Shown piece after piece: positions 29,011-36,162 of a stretch of DNA of 64,000 nucleotides. The notes under the pieces are model-generated. The model saw only the letters and a list, made by a program, of their open reading frames with translations. It did no database searches and was not told where the DNA came from. The stretch's first letter is position 1. Each line of letters opens with the position of its first letter. Made by a program: the position numbers and the translations under genes. Location: contig DLUF01000045.1 of assembly GCA_002742765.1 (NCBI GenBank), positions 1 through 64,000 of the forward strand, read 5' to 3'. Source of the DNA: Sulfurospirillum sp. UBA12182. Lineage in GTDB: Bacteria > Campylobacterota > Campylobacteria > Campylobacterales > Sulfurospirillaceae.

Positions 29011-29823
29011 TTATTGTAAAAAATTGAGTTGATACTCTCTTGGGGTAAGTGTTGTGAGCGCTTTAAAGTAACGATGAAAATGGCTTTGGTCAAAAAAACC
29101 ACACCTTAGAGCAACCAAACAGATATCTTCTTGCTGTTGCAATAACTCTTTTGCATACTCGATTTTGGCGTTTATCCTATATGCATGAGGTGTGATGCCA
29201 ACCTCTTCTTTAAAATTTCGTAACAAAGTGTAAGGATTTATCCCCATCGTTTTAGCGATACTCTCCAAAGTAACATCTACATCAAAATCACTTTGCATCT
29301 TCTCTTGTAAACTCTTTACATGTAAAGAGATTTTTTCCTCTTTTTTTGGTTTTTTTAGTTCGAGTTTCAAAAAGATTTTTTGCAACAAAGAGACCATCTT
29401 TTGCTCTTTTTCAAGGAGAAAATCTTCTTGCATAAAAAAATCCATAACTTCTATATACTCTTCATAGATTTTTTCATCTGCTAAAATAATCTGATTTGAA
29501 CAGATAAAGCTGTTTGTTTCAAAAAGAGATTGTTGGACTTGCAAAACCCAAGAAGTATCCAAATAAAGCATATAATAACTTCTTTTTATACCATTGAGAG
29601 GATTGCAATAGTGTAGAGAATTTGGGTTGATGAGTGCTAACTTGCCTCGTCCAAGCTGCGCTTCTTTGCCTGCGACATTATAAAGTACTTCCGCTTTATC
29701 AATAGCCCCTATACTAAAGCCAAAATGGATATGAGGCTTATAGTGTTTAGAGCTATTTGTTGTGTATCTGCACTCTATAAAAGGGAGATTTTTATCTTTG
29801 AAAAAAAGCTCTTTAGTTTTCAT
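29011..29823 (-). CDS. AraC family transcriptional regulator
   Basis: C-terminal LESIAKTMGINPYTLLRNFKEEVGITPHAYR...CGFFDQSHFHRYFKALTTLTPREY. Confidence 0.93.
   Translation of the reverse strand: MKTKELFFKDKNLPFIECRYTTNSSKHYKPHIHFGFSIGAIDKAEVLYNVAGKEAQLGRGKLALINPNSLHYCNPLNGIKRSYYMLYLDTSWVLQVQQSLFETNSFICSNQIILADEKIYEEYIEVMDFFMQEDFLLEKEQKMVSLLQKIFLKLELKKPKKEEKISLHVKSLQEKMQSDFDVDVTLESIAKTMGINPYTLLRNFKEEVGITPHAYRINAKIEYAKELLQQQEDICLVALRCGFFDQSHFHRYFKALTTLTPREYQLNFLQ
29315..29326. repeat. TTTACATGTAAA palindrome (exact 12-mer)
   Basis: In the araC-like gene, reads SLHVKSLQ; flanks give CTTTACATGTAAAG. Confidence 0.9.
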
Positions 29824-31099
29824 TTTGGCTTATTTGACTCTTGCAATGAGAACAAAACTCAAACCCTTTAATCGTATAATGCTGACAATTTGGACATGAG
29901 ATTTTAAGCGTATTGGCACAGTTTGGGCAAAAGTTCATAGAGTGATAATCTACTTTTATACCACATTTATCACATTTATTTGCTCTATAACTCTCGATAA
30001 AAGTTATAGTTGTTTTTTTCTTGTTTTTGTTGAAATTTTGAATCTTTAAGATAATGAAACTAAAAAGCACTATCCCTAGGAACAAAAGTACATAATACGC
30101 TACAAAAGGTATCTGTAAAGTATAAAAAAACATAAGCACTTTTTGTATAAAAACATGTGGGATAAAATTGTAGATGATAGAGATTAGATTGATGAGAAAA
30201 AATATCATTGAAATCACAAAAACATTTTTAAAGATTATATACTTTGTATAGTTCCTTTTTGCATTTTGGACACCCATCTGCCAATAAAAAAGAGTGATGA
30301 GAGGAAGTAAAAAGCCTATTATAATGCCTGATCTTTTTAGAAAATATCTACTATTTTCCCTCTTATAATCCTCTAGGATATCTCTTTTATGCTCTTTTAT
30401 ATACTGTTCTAAAGCAAGTACGAAAGTGTGGTTTTGAAACTCTGATTTTAAAAGGCTGATACTTTTTTCATGTGAAGCTATATTTTTTTTCAAAGTATCA
30501 TATTTTGCTTTGATATTTTTTGTTTCCAAATCCATCTCTAAGATAGAGTGAGACTCTTGCTGATTTGCTATCTTTTCAAACAAAACAGTATTGTAATTGT
30601 TTTGAATATAATTGATATCGCCTTGGAATTTTGTCTTCTCTTTTTCTAAAGCTTTTATACTTTTTTTTATATTTTGTAGCTCATTGGAGTTTGATATATT
30701 TTCGATTTGTGTTTTGATGTTTGCACATCTAGTATCTAACTCTTTTGATTTTATCTCTTTGATAAGATTTTTACTAGCCTGTGTCGTTCCATTTTGGTAG
30801 ATATAGTTTTGATTGTTTTGATTTTGAGGTGTAGTTTTGTACTGATACCAGTTATAATCTTTTACTCTCTCAACATCTTCTATGATATTTCTACACTGAT
30901 ATGTGAATTTCGTAGAGGGGTTATTTAAAGTAGCGGTTTGAAACTCTATACCCATATTAATCGCACTATAAACAAAAATATCAAGGATAATAACAAACAA
31001 AACTGCCCATTTTGTTAGTTTTTCGATATTTTTACTCTCTTGTTGGTAACTTAGCTTGTATCTATAAAAATCTAAAATTTTGCGAAATATTTTTATCAT
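29813..31099 (-). CDS. Membrane protein with coiled coil and C-terminal tandem zinc ribbons
   Basis: N-terminal TM, long coiled coil, cluster of TMs, then CDKCG...CPNC...CPNC...CSHC. Confidence 0.7.
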   Translation of the reverse strand: MIKIFRKILDFYRYKLSYQQESKNIEKLTKWAVLFVIILDIFVYSAINMGIEFQTATLNNPSTKFTYQCRNIIEDVERVKDYNWYQYKTTPQNQNNQNYIYQNGTTQASKNLIKEIKSKELDTRCANIKTQIENISNSNELQNIKKSIKALEKEKTKFQGDINYIQNNYNTVLFEKIANQQESHSILEMDLETKNIKAKYDTLKKNIASHEKSISLLKSEFQNHTFVLALEQYIKEHKRDILEDYKRENSRYFLKRSGIIIGFLLPLITLFYWQMGVQNAKRNYTKYIIFKNVFVISMIFFLINLISIIYNFIPHVFIQKVLMFFYTLQIPFVAYYVLLFLGIVLFSFIILKIQNFNKNKKKTTITFIESYRANKCDKCGIKVDYHSMNFCPNCANTLKISCPNCQHYTIKGFEFCSHCKSQISQNEN

Positions 31100-31132: not shown

Positions 31133-31603
31133 TCAAAAAATCAGATTTTCTTGTTTTGCTTGGAGAATCTGTACCAATGCCTTTGGAGAGAGTTTGATTT
31201 GCGCACCCCTAATCCCAGCACTCACACATATAAACTCTTGCTCACTTGCGCTTACATGTAAAAAAGTAGGATAGAGCTTTTTCATCCCAAAAGGAGAACA
31301 TCCCCCACGGATATAACCTGTGAGTTTAAGCAAATCTTTCTGCGGAATCATCACACACTTTTTACGATTTGCTACTTTTGCTAAAGCTTTTAAATCAAGC
31401 TCATCATCCCCAGGGATGCAAGCAACAAGAGGTTGATTTTTCTCATCTATACAAACCAAAGTTTTAAAAATTTGCTTGATATTTATCCCTGAAACTTCGG
31501 CTACATGTAAAGCACTCAAATCACTCTCATCAACCTCATACTCTATCACTTCATATTCGATTTTGTGTTTGTCTAAGATGCGACATGCGTTTGTTTTTTT
31601 CAT
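31133..31603 (-). CDS. ybaK: YbaK/EbsC-type aminoacyl-tRNA deacylase
   Basis: MKKTNACRILDKHKIEYEVIEYE, KTLVCIDEKNQPLVACIPGDDELD, YIRGGCSPFGMKK; ORF track start 31636, internal ATG at 31603 preferred. Confidence 0.9.
   Translation of the reverse strand: MKKTNACRILDKHKIEYEVIEYEVDESDLSALHVAEVSGINIKQIFKTLVCIDEKNQPLVACIPGDDELDLKALAKVANRKKCVMIPQKDLLKLTGYIRGGCSPFGMKKLYPTFLHVSASEQEFICVSAGIRGAQIKLSPKALVQILQAKQENLIF
31252..31261. repeat. TTACATGTAA palindrome core
   Basis: In ybaK, reads FLHVSASE. Confidence 0.85.
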
Positions 31604-31645
31604 AATAACTCCTTGGAACTCTTGATATATTTTCAAATAAATTAC

Positions 31646-31860
31646 TACGGCAATAAATCCAACCCCAACTCTTTTAAAAATGCATTATGCTCATTTGTAT
31701 ATTTGAGTATATCTTTTTCCAGATTCACCACGTAGTTCTCGCAATTGTCAAATAATCCTTTACAACTGAGTTTTGCTCTAACTCGCCGCAAGAAGCGATA
31801 CAAAAGCTTTAACGTCTATTGCGTTGTAGATGATGATGTTTTTTTCTTCAACCATCTATT
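31646..31860 (-). pseudogene. Probable decayed coding remnant
   Basis: Two out-of-phase coding-like fragments: MVEEKNIIIYNAIDVKAFVSLLAAS* and (open) LKLLYRFLRRVRAKLSCKGLFDNCENYVVNLEKDILKYTNEHNAFLKELGLDLLP*. No intact gene. Confidence 0.4.
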
Positions 31861-32854
31861 CTCCTAAAATATTTACTATCAGATTTATCACGGTTTCTTT
31901 TTGTTGTGGGTCACTTTTGGCGCTCATGAGCGAGAGTGCCACCAGAGCGTTATCGTTGATTTTTAGCTCACCACTACTTTTGTAAAGCATATTGTTTTTT
32001 GACAAAAAAAGTATAAACATAAAAGCACCAATGCGTTTGTTGCCATCATTAAACGGATGCCCCTTGATGATGTAGTAAAGCAGATTTGCCGCTTTTTCTT
32101 CAACACTAGGAAGGAGATCAACACCGCCAAATGTTTGGTAGATATTTCGCACCATTCCACCAAACTCTCCGGCTTTTTCTCTTCCAAAAAGCTCTGTAGC
32201 TTCCCCTTTTCTCATAAGTTCACTTTTGAGTTGAGCGATAGCCTCTTTTGCCTCATCAACATCCAAAACAAACTTTGCCTCTTTGGGTACGATGTTTACA
32301 TGTAAAGAATCCTCATCATACCCTTGCAGCAGTGACCAGGTACGAGAATAATTAAGTATCACATCCAACAACCCTTTGGCTTCATGAAGCTCAAGCTCAC
32401 TTTGTGAAATCGTACTTTGTAGCAGAGATATCGTCTTGTTTAACTCTTGAAGCCCTTTTTGCTCTAGCCTTTTTTGGTTGAGTGCGTAACCGTTTATGAG
32501 ATATTCTTTAAGAACTTTGGTCGCCCATACTCTAAAGCTTGTGGCTCTTTTAGAATTTACTCTGTAGCCCAAAGAGATAATCATATCGAGGTTATAGAAC
32601 TCTACTTCCCGCTTGACTTCTCTTTTTCCTTCTTTTTGAACTGTTTCCATTTTGGAAATAGTTGAACTATTTAATTCGCCATCTGAAAGAATATTTTTGA
32701 TATGTTTATTTATAGCAGGCACATTTACATCAAAAAGCAAAGCCATCTGCTTCTGGCTCAACCATACAGTATCGTTTTCAAGCGATACATCAAGCTTTAT
32801 CTCTCCGTTAGCATCTTTGTAGATGATGATTTGGTTGTTTGGTTCGGTTATCAT
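31856..32854 (-). CDS. RhuM-like N-terminal domain fused to Fic/DOC domain
   Basis: RhuM-like IIIYKDANGEIKLDVSLENDTVWLSQKQMALLFDVNVPAINKHIKNIL and VEFYNLDMIISLGYRVNSKRATSFRVWATKVLKEYLINGYALNQ; Fic motif HPFNDGNKR. Confidence 0.9.
   Translation of the reverse strand: MITEPNNQIIIYKDANGEIKLDVSLENDTVWLSQKQMALLFDVNVPAINKHIKNILSDGELNSSTISKMETVQKEGKREVKREVEFYNLDMIISLGYRVNSKRATSFRVWATKVLKEYLINGYALNQKRLEQKGLQELNKTISLLQSTISQSELELHEAKGLLDVILNYSRTWSLLQGYDEDSLHVNIVPKEAKFVLDVDEAKEAIAQLKSELMRKGEATELFGREKAGEFGGMVRNIYQTFGGVDLLPSVEEKAANLLYYIIKGHPFNDGNKRIGAFMFILFLSKNNMLYKSSGELKINDNALVALSLMSAKSDPQQKETVINLIVNILGE
32295..32306. repeat. TTTACATGTAAA palindrome (exact 12-mer)
   Basis: In rhuM-fic, reads SLHVNIVP. 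Confidence 0.9.
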
Positions 32855-32855
32855 T

Positions 32856-32960
32856 TTAAGCTACCTTTTGAACTGTTGCAAAATTTACAACAACTGGATT
32901 TTGTCTGGTTATAGTTTGTGTTGTTGAAGTTTTGATTATTTTGCATACACCTTTCAGCAT
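32856..32960 (-). CDS. 34-aa micro-ORF between the RloC-like and RhuM-Fic genes
   Basis: ATG directly abuts the RloC-like TAG; reads MLKGVCKIIKTSTTQTITRQNPVVVNFATVQKVA*, ending 2 nt before the RhuM-Fic ATG. Absent from ORF track because of size. Confidence 0.3.
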   Translation of the reverse strand: MLKGVCKIIKTSTTQTITRQNPVVVNFATVQKVA

Positions 32961-35195
32961 CTATAAATTCTTCTTCATAACTTCAATTTGCCCATCAAAT
33001 TTGCTTGAAATAACTTCAATAACCTTTTTACAACCTTTTATTATCATATCTGGAGTAGTTGCCATTTGGTTTCTATAATTGCCATGAGAATTATCATGGA
33101 TTAGTGCATACAAAAATTCATTATCATCTTTTAAAAGCTCTATATTTTCGCAATATGTGATAAAATCTAAATTAGGTTTTTCAAATTTATTGATCGTCTC
33201 TAAAATATGCCTGATTAAGTTTGGTATCGTATGAGATGGTGTTTTTGTACCTTCAGACACCTCATAAATATCTCTTAAATGCTCTTCATAAGGCATAATA
33301 AGCTCTTTTTGAAGCTTCTTAATTTCTGATTTTTCAAGTATAAATTGTCCATTTACAATTCTATTTCTTATTAAAATGCTCATAAATTCTATGTTATGAG
33401 TCAAAACAAGAAATCGTAATTTATCTCCAATTGGAAATCTACTATCATCATTTAATCTTCTAATTATTTGAGCTACCGAATAAACATAATGAAAATCCAA
33501 ACTTGAGATTGGGTCATCTATCACAAAAAAAAGTTTTTTATAATCATCTTTTTTATTAATTTTTTTATGTGTTTCTGCTAAGAAAAAGCAAAAAGCCACA
33601 ATGCTTTTTTCGCCATCGCTCAAAACATCAGAAGCATTACTAATCAAATTGTGAGTATCAAATTTCAAACAAAAATTATCTTTGTCAAAAGTATATTTAC
33701 CCGCAAAAAACACATTTAAAAATTCTTCAAAAGCTTCTATAACTTTGTCTTTTTTTAAAGCTTTGGCTTGATTCTCTTTGTCGCTAATATCTTTCTCTAA
33801 GTTTTGAATTTCTTTTTGTAAAGCTACTATCTCATCTATATTTTTTATTTCAGATTGAAGTGTTTTTAAATATTGAGCTTTGCAAAGTCTTTTTTTGATA
33901 TTTAACTTTTCGTTATTTGTATTATTTTTAGCTTTGTTTAATTCATCGATATTTTTGTTATTTTTAATAGCCATATCGCTATTAGTTTTCTTGAATGCTT
34001 CAATATTTTTAATATGAACTTCTATACTTAGTTCTTTAGAAATATCATTCTTTGTATCATTGAGTATTGAAACTATGGCAATAAAATCATTTTCTAAACT
34101 TCCAGAATCTTGAAGCAATTCTATGTTTTGTTCTTTAAACGACGGCAAATATTTTTTTACATCATCAAAATCAGTTTTTGATTTTAATGAGTTCTTGTAA
34201 TTATTATCAATTTGTTGTTTTACTTCATCAACTCTTTTTATAAAAGTATCTATTTGAGAAATTATTTTAGCCTCTTCATCAGCTAAATATTTAGTATAAG
34301 TATCAATTAATTCTAAAGCATTTTGATCAAATGTTTGTTCACAAAAAGGACATTTATTTTCAGTTGTTATTTTTAAACCACTTTCTATAAATCCTTGTTT
34401 TGATTTAATTTTAGTTTTAAACTCTTCTGCAAAATGGCTTTTTGAGTAGCTATGCTTTAGTGTCTGTTCTAAATTGTCAAAAAAATCTGTTACGACATTT
34501 GCATTATTTACTGCTACATTTGGTAAATCATCAGGTAGAGTATTTAAAATAGTATTTTCTTTTTTTAACTCTTCAAAGCTTTTACTCTCACTATATCCGA
34601 AATCATTTTTACTAAAGATATTTTCAATTTTAAAATTTTTATATTCTGTTGTTCCTTTGTTAATAGCTAAATCTTTGTCATCAAGGATTATTTTTTGAGT
34701 ATTTACCCTAAGCTCAAACTCTTGTTTTTTTGTCTTTAAAGTTTCATTTTTTTCATCAAGTTCTTTTTTTTCTTTTGTTAAATCAATTTGAACTTTACTT
34801 AATATGTAACCCTCAATATTTCCGTCAGGCTTATATCCTAAATCTTCAATATTATCATGGACATAATCACTATTAAAAACATGAAATATAAGAGGTAAAG
34901 AAGATGAGATTGTTGGTGTAATGCCTTTATTAATATTTAGCTCCAATGTTCCGTTATTAGTTCCATCGCTTATTTCAAATTTCATTTTTCCTTCATCTTT
35001 TGTAAATGAAAGTAATTTATCTGAATTTTGACTTATTGGATTTTCAATCAAACGGAATAATCTACTAATAAAAGTCTTACCGCTCCCATTGTTGGCATAC
35101 ATTGCCGTTTTTAAGGAAGATGTTTTTCCTGTAAAATCAATCTTTGCATGAGGTCCGATATTTTCAATTTTTAATCCAATAGTTAATTCAGCCAT
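32961..35195 (-). CDS. AAA_13-type ATPase, RloC/PrrC-like candidate anticodon nuclease
   Basis: Walker A ANNGSGKT, hook-like CPFCEQTF within coiled coil, LSDGEKSIVAFCFFLAETH signature, Walker B LFFVIDDPISSLD; C-terminal RHILE...IHDNSH resembling the PrrC R-x3-E...H arrangement. Confidence 0.75.
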   Translation of the reverse strand: MAELTIGLKIENIGPHAKIDFTGKTSSLKTAMYANNGSGKTFISRLFRLIENPISQNSDKLLSFTKDEGKMKFEISDGTNNGTLELNINKGITPTISSSLPLIFHVFNSDYVHDNIEDLGYKPDGNIEGYILSKVQIDLTKEKKELDEKNETLKTKKQEFELRVNTQKIILDDKDLAINKGTTEYKNFKIENIFSKNDFGYSESKSFEELKKENTILNTLPDDLPNVAVNNANVVTDFFDNLEQTLKHSYSKSHFAEEFKTKIKSKQGFIESGLKITTENKCPFCEQTFDQNALELIDTYTKYLADEEAKIISQIDTFIKRVDEVKQQIDNNYKNSLKSKTDFDDVKKYLPSFKEQNIELLQDSGSLENDFIAIVSILNDTKNDISKELSIEVHIKNIEAFKKTNSDMAIKNNKNIDELNKAKNNTNNEKLNIKKRLCKAQYLKTLQSEIKNIDEIVALQKEIQNLEKDISDKENQAKALKKDKVIEAFEEFLNVFFAGKYTFDKDNFCLKFDTHNLISNASDVLSDGEKSIVAFCFFLAETHKKINKKDDYKKLFFVIDDPISSLDFHYVYSVAQIIRRLNDDSRFPIGDKLRFLVLTHNIEFMSILIRNRIVNGQFILEKSEIKKLQKELIMPYEEHLRDIYEVSEGTKTPSHTIPNLIRHILETINKFEKPNLDFITYCENIELLKDDNEFLYALIHDNSHGNYRNQMATTPDMIIKGCKKVIEVISSKFDGQIEVMKKNL

Positions 35196-35197
35196 TT

Positions 35198-35467
35198 TTA
35201 GTCCGCCTCTTTTGATGGAAATAGCTGTTGCATCGGCTCTTTTTTATATTGTGCCGTGAAGACATCAGCAGAAATAATTTGCTCTATTAATCTTGAAAAC
35301 TCTGCATCACTTAAATTGACGTAATTTAGTTCTTGAAATTTTTCGCGGAAATTTTGGTTAAGCGCATCACGGGTTCGGATATCGGGACGATATGTATATT
35401 TTTGTTCTATGAGTTTGTTTATAAAATTTTGCTCGATGTGATTTTCTTTTGTCATGCCTCTTCCCAT
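35198..35467 (-). CDS. HsdR N-terminal fragment (type I restriction R subunit stub)
   Basis: 89 aa; HIEQNFINKLIEQKYTYRPDIRTRDALNQNFREKFQELNYVNLSDAEFSRLIEQIISADVF resembles HsdR N-termini, then ends. Confidence 0.7.
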   Translation of the reverse strand: MGRGMTKENHIEQNFINKLIEQKYTYRPDIRTRDALNQNFREKFQELNYVNLSDAEFSRLIEQIISADVFTAQYKKEPMQQLFPSKEAD

Positions 35468-35613
35468 GATAATACTTTTACTTGTTTTATATATTTATTG
35501 CCTATCAATTTGATAAATCATAAAAAAATAAAGGATAGCATATGCATACTTCTAAAAGAATAAAGAGTATTTTGACATCGCAAAAGAGTCCAAACGAGGT
35601 AATTATATTGGAA

Positions 35614-36162
35614 TTAAAAGTGCAAAATCTTGCTTTTTTGAAAATAAATCCTATATCCCACAAGCACTATAGCAAAAGCTATAAAAAAGTATTCTAAAAT
35701 TCCCATAACTTTTTGTGCCATATTTTCGTGGATAACTACCAAAATGAGAGCTATATAAACTAACTTATGCCATTTATTATACTTTGCAAAGAGTTTTTTT
35801 GTAGAGGTAAATCCCATAAAAACAAAAATCAAAAAGGCTACCATCCCAAGGTAGATAAAAGGTTTATCCAAAGTCTCTTTCAAAACAAATGAGATATCAA
35901 ACTGTGCGTCTAAAACAAAAAAATTGGCAAAGTGTAAAAATGCATAAAAAAGGGCAAAAAGCCCTAAAGTTTTGCGATAAACCATCAGGTTATATATCTT
36001 TTTTAAAGGGCTTATGCAAAGCGAAGCAAACAAAAAGCCCATAGAGCTAAGGCCTGTAAAAGTATAGATATACTTTATCGGGTCATTGGCATTTTGAACG
36101 CTATATACAAGATACAAAAGAGGGGTTAAAGAGATGAAAACAAGAAGAGTTTTTTTCATCAA
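35614..36162 (-). CDS. msrQ: Protein-methionine-sulfoxide reductase heme-binding subunit MsrQ
   Basis: Multi-TM ferric-reductase-like; overlaps the msrP end. Confidence 0.88.

What the first reader, a model, noticed from the sequence alone, without database searches (positions are those of the whole stretch)
31646..35467. Remnant type I restriction island retaining only accessory/toxin genes
Order on the minus strand: HsdR N-terminal stub (35198-35467), RloC/PrrC-like ATPase (32961-35195), 34-aa micro-ORF, RhuM-Fic fusion (31856-32854), decayed ORF (31646-31860). RloC, PrrC and RhuM-type genes are known to co-occur with hsdRMS. Here the hsdM, hsdS and motor parts of hsdR are absent from the window while the toxin-like genes stay open. 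Either decay is in progress or the residual genes are retained as a stand-alone defence unit.
Basis: partly seen in the sequence, partly recalled or inferred. Interest (0 to 1): 0.62.

Follow-up and report, generated by a model that had tools for sequence, protein, structure and literature searches.

The report
Collapsed restriction operon, two toxins left
A horizontally acquired DNA-restriction operon has been whittled down by at least three deletions to scraps of each of its three enzyme genes, leaving whole only two passenger genes that resemble a self-regulated tRNA-cutting defence protein (RloC) and a Fic-domain protein; this is a clear example of a known kind of decay.

Summary
The 89-aa 'HsdR stub' is a chimera: HsdR residues 1-72 joined in frame to the last ~16 residues of HsdS. 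The 'decayed ORF' is the 5' part of a RhuM gene (with a ~100-bp internal deletion) joined to the last ~26 codons of hsdM. So pieces of all three hsd genes are present, in the order of intact relatives: hsdR-hsdS-[cargo]-hsdM, found in 9 of 9 complete loci whose HsdR resembles the stub. The best relative (G211) has an 82%-identical HsdR N-terminus and a 93%-identical RhuM-Fic in one intact operon. The hsdR-hsdS junction was seen in no other genome of 399 searched. The two open genes are a 744-aa RloC-type ATPase, with every RloC sequence motif, and a RhuM-Fic protein. Both families occur inside type I operons and, more often, without them. Published RloC works in R-M mutants, so autonomous function is plausible but untested here. 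Low dN/dS cannot decide, because the dead stub is as constrained (0.06) as RhuM-Fic (0.07): decay is recent. Verdict: a new member of a known kind (rlo/mlo cargo outliving its hsd operon), of modest interest.

The parts
35468..35564 (-). 5' region upstream of hsdR, conserved with the intact G211 operon; presumed promoter region retained
   Evidence: blastn 82% over 35253-35564 against L076 16078-16387, alignment; promoter function inferred
35253..35467 (-). hsdR 5' remnant (HsdR residues 1-72)
   Evidence: 82% aa identity to G211 HsdR; PADLOC REase_I 2.6e-18
35198..35247 (-). hsdS 3' remnant joined in frame to hsdR', giving an 89-aa chimeric ORF that ends on the hsdS stop and sits 2 nt before the ATPase start
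32961..35195 (-). RloC-type ABC ATPase, 744 aa: Walker A ANNGSGKT, CPFC hook, LSDGE signature, IDDPISSLD Walker B, C-terminal R662-X3-E666-X37-H704
32856..32960 (-). 34-aa micro-ORF, origin undetermined (weak RhuM-like scrap at best)
   Evidence: (19 of 200 shuffles score as well), family D6
31856..32854 (-). RhuM-Fic protein, 332 aa, Fic motif HPFNDGNKRIG
   Evidence: Pfam RhuM 8e-28, Fic 1.1e-11; PADLOC PDC-S23 443.7 bits; 93% identical to G211
31741..31850 (-). RhuM 5' remnant with a ~100-bp internal deletion (frameshift) between 31788 and 31787
   Evidence: two blocks against L076 9278-9215 and 9114-9068, alignment
31644..31724 (-). hsdM 3' remnant, last ~26 codons and stop
   Evidence: 75% to L076, 86% over 59 bp to L080; 0 of 1000 shuffles

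Best explanation
The locus is a horizontally acquired type I restriction-modification operon with the layout hsdR-hsdS-[RloC-type ATPase, RhuM-Fic, RhuM]-hsdM. It lies between msrQ and ybaK, where two congeners carry other genes. At least three deletions removed (a) nearly all of hsdR and hsdS, (b) about 100 bp inside RhuM, and (c) the rest of RhuM and nearly all of hsdM (shown by the junctions). What remains is a compact unit: the hsdR 5' region and start, an 89-aa hsdR'-'hsdS leader ORF, then the intact ATPase and RhuM-Fic. Inferred: the in-frame leader keeps transcription and translation running into the ATPase. Inferred from RloC biology: the ATPase is an autonomous, DNA-break-responsive anticodon nuclease that needs no HsdRMS partner, and RhuM-Fic is a second, independent toxin-like cargo. 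Both could therefore still act as last-resort phage defence after restriction was lost. Whether either is still expressed or selected is not shown. Confidence: about 0.95 for the collapse, about 0.55 for retained function of the cargo; the figure given is for the origin together with the assignment of the two open genes.
For: Remnants of hsdR, hsdS, RhuM and hsdM in the correct order and strand. Intact relative G211 with hsdR 82% and RhuM-Fic 93% identical in one operon. Constant hsdR-hsdS-cargo-hsdM order in 9 of 9 complete loci with this HsdR type. A junction query over 399 genomes matches hsdR parts and hsdS parts separately, together only in this genome. ATPase relatives sit in type I operons in G333, G355 and L095. 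All RloC motifs present, with R/E/H and CPxC invariant across nine relatives. Published RloC criteria: R-X3-E-X36-52-H, CXXC hook, 658-897 aa (PMC2610378); RloC active in hsdR and hsdM mutants (PMC3874168).
Against: No expression, toxicity or phage data. The stub's dN/dS (0.06) equals that of RhuM-Fic (0.07), so open frames may only mean that decay is young. For the ATPase the nearest relative is 55% identical with dS near saturation, so current selection cannot be measured. The number and extent of deletions assume a G211-like ancestor; the real donor allele was not found.
Confidence: 0.85

Rival explanations
1. Simple ongoing pseudogenisation: the two open genes are inert passengers that have not yet been hit, with no defence role left.
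For: Stub and RhuM-Fic show the same low dN/dS, so decay is recent relative to the G211 split; neighbouring RhuM is already broken; the unit is found in one genome only.
Against: Every deletion fell in hsd or RhuM sequence and none in 3.2 kb of cargo coding sequence; both cargo families live without hsd genes in many genomes; RloC does not need HsdRMS.
Confidence: 0.35
2. The ATPase still works with the other type I system of the same genome (contig C20) in trans, as proposed for Geobacillus kaustophilus RloC beside its hsdR relic.
For: C20 holds hsdM, hsdS and an hsdR cut by the contig end; precedent in PMC2610378.
Against: HsdM of C20 is only 26% identical to the G211-type HsdM; A. baylyi RloC is neither silenced nor activated through R-M.
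Confidence: 0.08
3. A purpose-built compact defence unit that never belonged to a type I operon; similarity to hsd genes is coincidental.
For: Both cargo families are often found without hsd genes.
Against: Four hsd/RhuM remnants in operon order, each with significant DNA matches; a 93%-identical RhuM-Fic lies in an intact operon in G211.
Confidence: 0.02

Closest known systems
Campylobacter jejuni hsd loci with rlo/mlo cargo genes (Miller et al. 2005, as described in PMC5183652 and PMC2610378)
   Same: Type I hsd operon with variable extra genes between its subunit genes, including RloC-type genes; mlo genes lie between hsdS and hsdM, as the cargo does here
   Different: Here the hsd genes are reduced to scraps; the cargo is a RloC-type ATPase plus RhuM-Fic plus a broken RhuM
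Geobacillus kaustophilus rloC beside an hsdR relic (PMC2610378, Fig. 7)
   Same: An rloC gene left next to a dead fragment of a type I subunit gene, with an hsd locus elsewhere in the genome
   Different: There the relic is the hsdR C-half, rloC lies in an IS4-family transposon and the relic is 98% identical to the resident hsdR; here all three hsd genes left pieces, no transposon was seen, and the resident system is of another type
RloC anticodon nuclease (A. baylyi, G. kaustophilus)
   Same: ABC head, zinc-hook CXXC in a coiled-coil insert, C-terminal R-X3-E-Xn-H triad, size
   Different: Enzyme activity not tested here; no direct alignment with a characterised RloC was made
RhuM/Fic proteins (PADLOC phage-defence candidate PDC-S23)
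   Same: Same two-domain protein, 93% identical to an operon-borne copy
   Different: No functional data for this family were found; here left behind after hsd loss

Membership tests
RloC anticodon nucleases | ABC ATPase head split by a long coiled-coil insert | tested here: met
   Walker A at 34-41, signature and Walker B at 525-567, long helices 291-347 and 392-475 in the model; Rad50/SMC heads among fold matches
RloC anticodon nucleases | Central CXXC zinc-hook motif | tested here: met
   C282-P-F-C285, invariant CPxC in nine relatives; criterion from PMC2610378
RloC anticodon nucleases | C-terminal R-X3-E-X36-52-H triad, often S before H | tested here: met
   R662, E666, S703-H704 (X37), invariant in nine relatives
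RloC anticodon nucleases | Length 658-897 aa | tested here: met
   744 aa
RloC anticodon nucleases | tRNA anticodon cleavage with wobble-nucleotide excision | not testable with these tools
   needs biochemistry
PrrC | About 341-416 aa, no coiled-coil insert, linked to a type Ic hsd locus | tested here: not met
   744 aa with insert, hsd genes dead; PrrC profile matches only the C-terminal third
Functional type I restriction-modification system | Complete hsdR, hsdM and hsdS | tested here: not met
   only fragments at this locus; no other HsdR of this type in the genome
Type I hsd locus with rlo/mlo cargo (origin) | hsdR-hsdS-cargo-hsdM order on one strand | tested here: met
   remnant order matches 9 of 9 complete relatives
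RhuM-Fic (PDC-S23) | RhuM N-terminal domain plus Fic domain with HxFxDGNKR-type motif | tested here: met
   (FxDGNKRIG invariant in 14 sequences)

The most novel reading that the evidence does not exclude
The collapse was selected: an in-frame hsdR'-'hsdS fusion turned the restriction genes into a short leader that keeps the old promoter and translational coupling, converting a cargo-bearing type I operon into a minimal restriction-free RloC plus RhuM-Fic defence operon.
Probability: 0.2. Interest if true: 0.5.

Novelty: new member of a known kind. Interest (0 to 1): 0.33.

Why it matters
It shows, junction by junction, how a type I operon can lose restriction and modification while its passenger toxins remain open. 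That fits the published idea that RloC, unlike PrrC, has its own switch and does not need its restriction partner. The locus is also a natural test: RloC-type and RhuM-Fic genes separated from HsdRMS can be assayed as they stand. It also warns that low dN/dS of open cargo genes is not evidence of retained function when the dead remnants show the same value.

Tried and rejected
A single-protein scan of genome contigs with the ATPase found nothing; an alignment query worked. The micro-ORF was tested as a RhuM scrap: no significant relative. dN/dS as evidence for retention was rejected because the stub behaves the same. Direct or inverted repeats bounding the island: none convincing. Promoter-like sites in the interval are fewer than in shuffles, so no promoter call was made. 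Solved structures by sequence: none for the ATPase, a weak Doc-type hit for RhuM-Fic. The fold search returned SMC, Rad50, Lamassu and retron-associated ATPase heads with low whole-length TM-scores, so it supports only the ATPase class. Exact microhomology at the deletion points could not be decided because the donor allele is unknown. czcCBA of the congeners was looked for elsewhere in this genome: only distant RND pumps.

Full report
Observation. The 744-aa ORF scores 845 bits against PADLOC PDC-S06 and also matches PrrC over its C-terminal third; the 332-aa ORF scores 444 bits against PDC-S23 and holds RhuM and Fic domains; the 89-aa ORF matches only the N-terminus of type I HsdR.

What the scraps are. 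Aligning the interval with the best relative, G211 (L076; found by both the stub at 82% and RhuM-Fic at 93% identity), and with G230 (L080) resolves every piece. Window 35564-35253 is hsdR with about 95 bp of upstream sequence. Window 35247 to the stub's stop is the hsdS 3' end. Window 31850-31788 and 31787-31741 are two blocks of RhuM, missing 100 bp between them. Window 31724-31644 is the hsdM 3' end with its stop. The two shortest protein tails beat all of 1000 shuffles. A query spanning the first junction hit hsdR (positions 1-88) and hsdS (91-136) separately in other genomes, never together outside this genome, in 399 genomes of the order.

Ancestral layout. In nine complete loci whose HsdR belongs to the stub's type, the order is always hsdR-hsdS-(cargo)-hsdM, with cargo ranging from nothing to SIR2-like, AlbA-type, PHP-ATPase, short AAA_13-type and RhuM genes (the names of the cargo genes other than RhuM are my reading of their sequences). 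The window keeps exactly this order, with the ATPase and RhuM-Fic in the hsdS-hsdM gap. So an operon hsdR-hsdS-ATPase-RhuM-Fic-RhuM-hsdM lost its enzyme genes by at least three deletions: about 3.9 kb across hsdR/hsdS and 3.4 kb across RhuM/hsdM if measured on G211, plus 100 bp in RhuM.

Site. In the two other genomes of the genus the msrQ-ybaK interval holds other genes (a CzcCBA-type efflux operon in G002; LysR, transporter, fumarase, two-component and efflux genes in G001). The ATPase is absent from both, and close homologues were found in only two other genomes of 349 sampled in the order. The island is therefore a local acquisition at a variable site.

The ATPase. It meets each sequence criterion published for RloC (PMC2610378): length, ABC head split by a coiled coil, CXXC hook, and R-X3-E-X36-52-H. 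The hook cysteines and the triad are invariant in an alignment of nine sequences, the others 29-55% identical to it. The AlphaFold2 model (mean pLDDT 82.7, pTM 0.51) shows the split head and long helices; fold matches are SMC/Rad50-type ATPases. Relatives lie in type I operons (G333, G355, L095), beside other DNA methylases (L093), or with no hsd gene in reach (for example L086, L087, L089).

RhuM-Fic. Of 25 relatives with flanking sequence, 4 lie by type I genes and 21 show none in the DNA fetched, some of it cut by contig ends. In the same genus (G001) one lies between two-component genes. The family is also widespread on plasmids.

Function. RloC, unlike PrrC, has an internal switch: in A. 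baylyi it is activated by DNA-break inducers even in hsdR and hsdM mutants (PMC3874168). Loss of HsdRMS therefore need not silence this ATPase. The chimeric leader ends 2 nt before the ATPase start, and its in-frame fusion would keep ribosomes running to that point; this is inference. Whether the genes are still selected is open: between this genome and G211, dN/dS is 0.07 for RhuM-Fic and 0.06 for the 72-codon dead hsdR stub, so the value reflects the time before decay.

Other hsd genes. The genome has a second type I system on contig C20 (hsdM, hsdS, and hsdR cut by the contig end), 26% identical in HsdM, next to an integrase. No other HsdR of the stub's type was found.

Known or new. Cargo genes within C. 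jejuni hsd loci are the original rlo and mlo genes (PMC5183652), and G. kaustophilus rloC lies beside an hsdR relic (PMC2610378). The present locus is a well-resolved further case, not a new kind.

Noticed in passing
L076:10990-11091 and L079:9314-9421: Fragments of the RhuM 5' end (34-36 codons) lie after hsdS and just before the same AlbA-type gene in two intact type I operons that also carry a full RhuM further down; they look like footprints of cargo exchange inside hsd operons.
   Followed up: partly
window 31603-35614; L077, L078: The msrQ-ybaK interval is a variable site: each of three genomes of the genus carries different genes there, and G001 has a 62-bp duplicate of the msrQ 3' end (L077 9846-9906) that may mark an insertion.
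   Followed up: partly
L015 (G000:C20:1-14000): A second type I hsdM-hsdS (hsdR cut by the contig end) sits by a HipA-like pair and a tyrosine integrase.
   Followed up: partly
window 29813-31099: A 428-aa membrane and zinc-ribbon protein lies between ybaK and an AraC-type gene; in G001 these two neighbours are directly adjacent, so this gene is probably another local insertion.
   Followed up: no
L133:6059-7656 and L134:7059-8852: hsdM matches split into two pieces in two relatives with this type I system, suggesting a broken or phase-variable hsdM.
   Followed up: no
L081:4534-5532: In a genome of the same genus a RhuM-Fic gene lies between histidine-kinase and response-regulator genes, its start overlapping the end of the kinase gene.
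   Followed up: no
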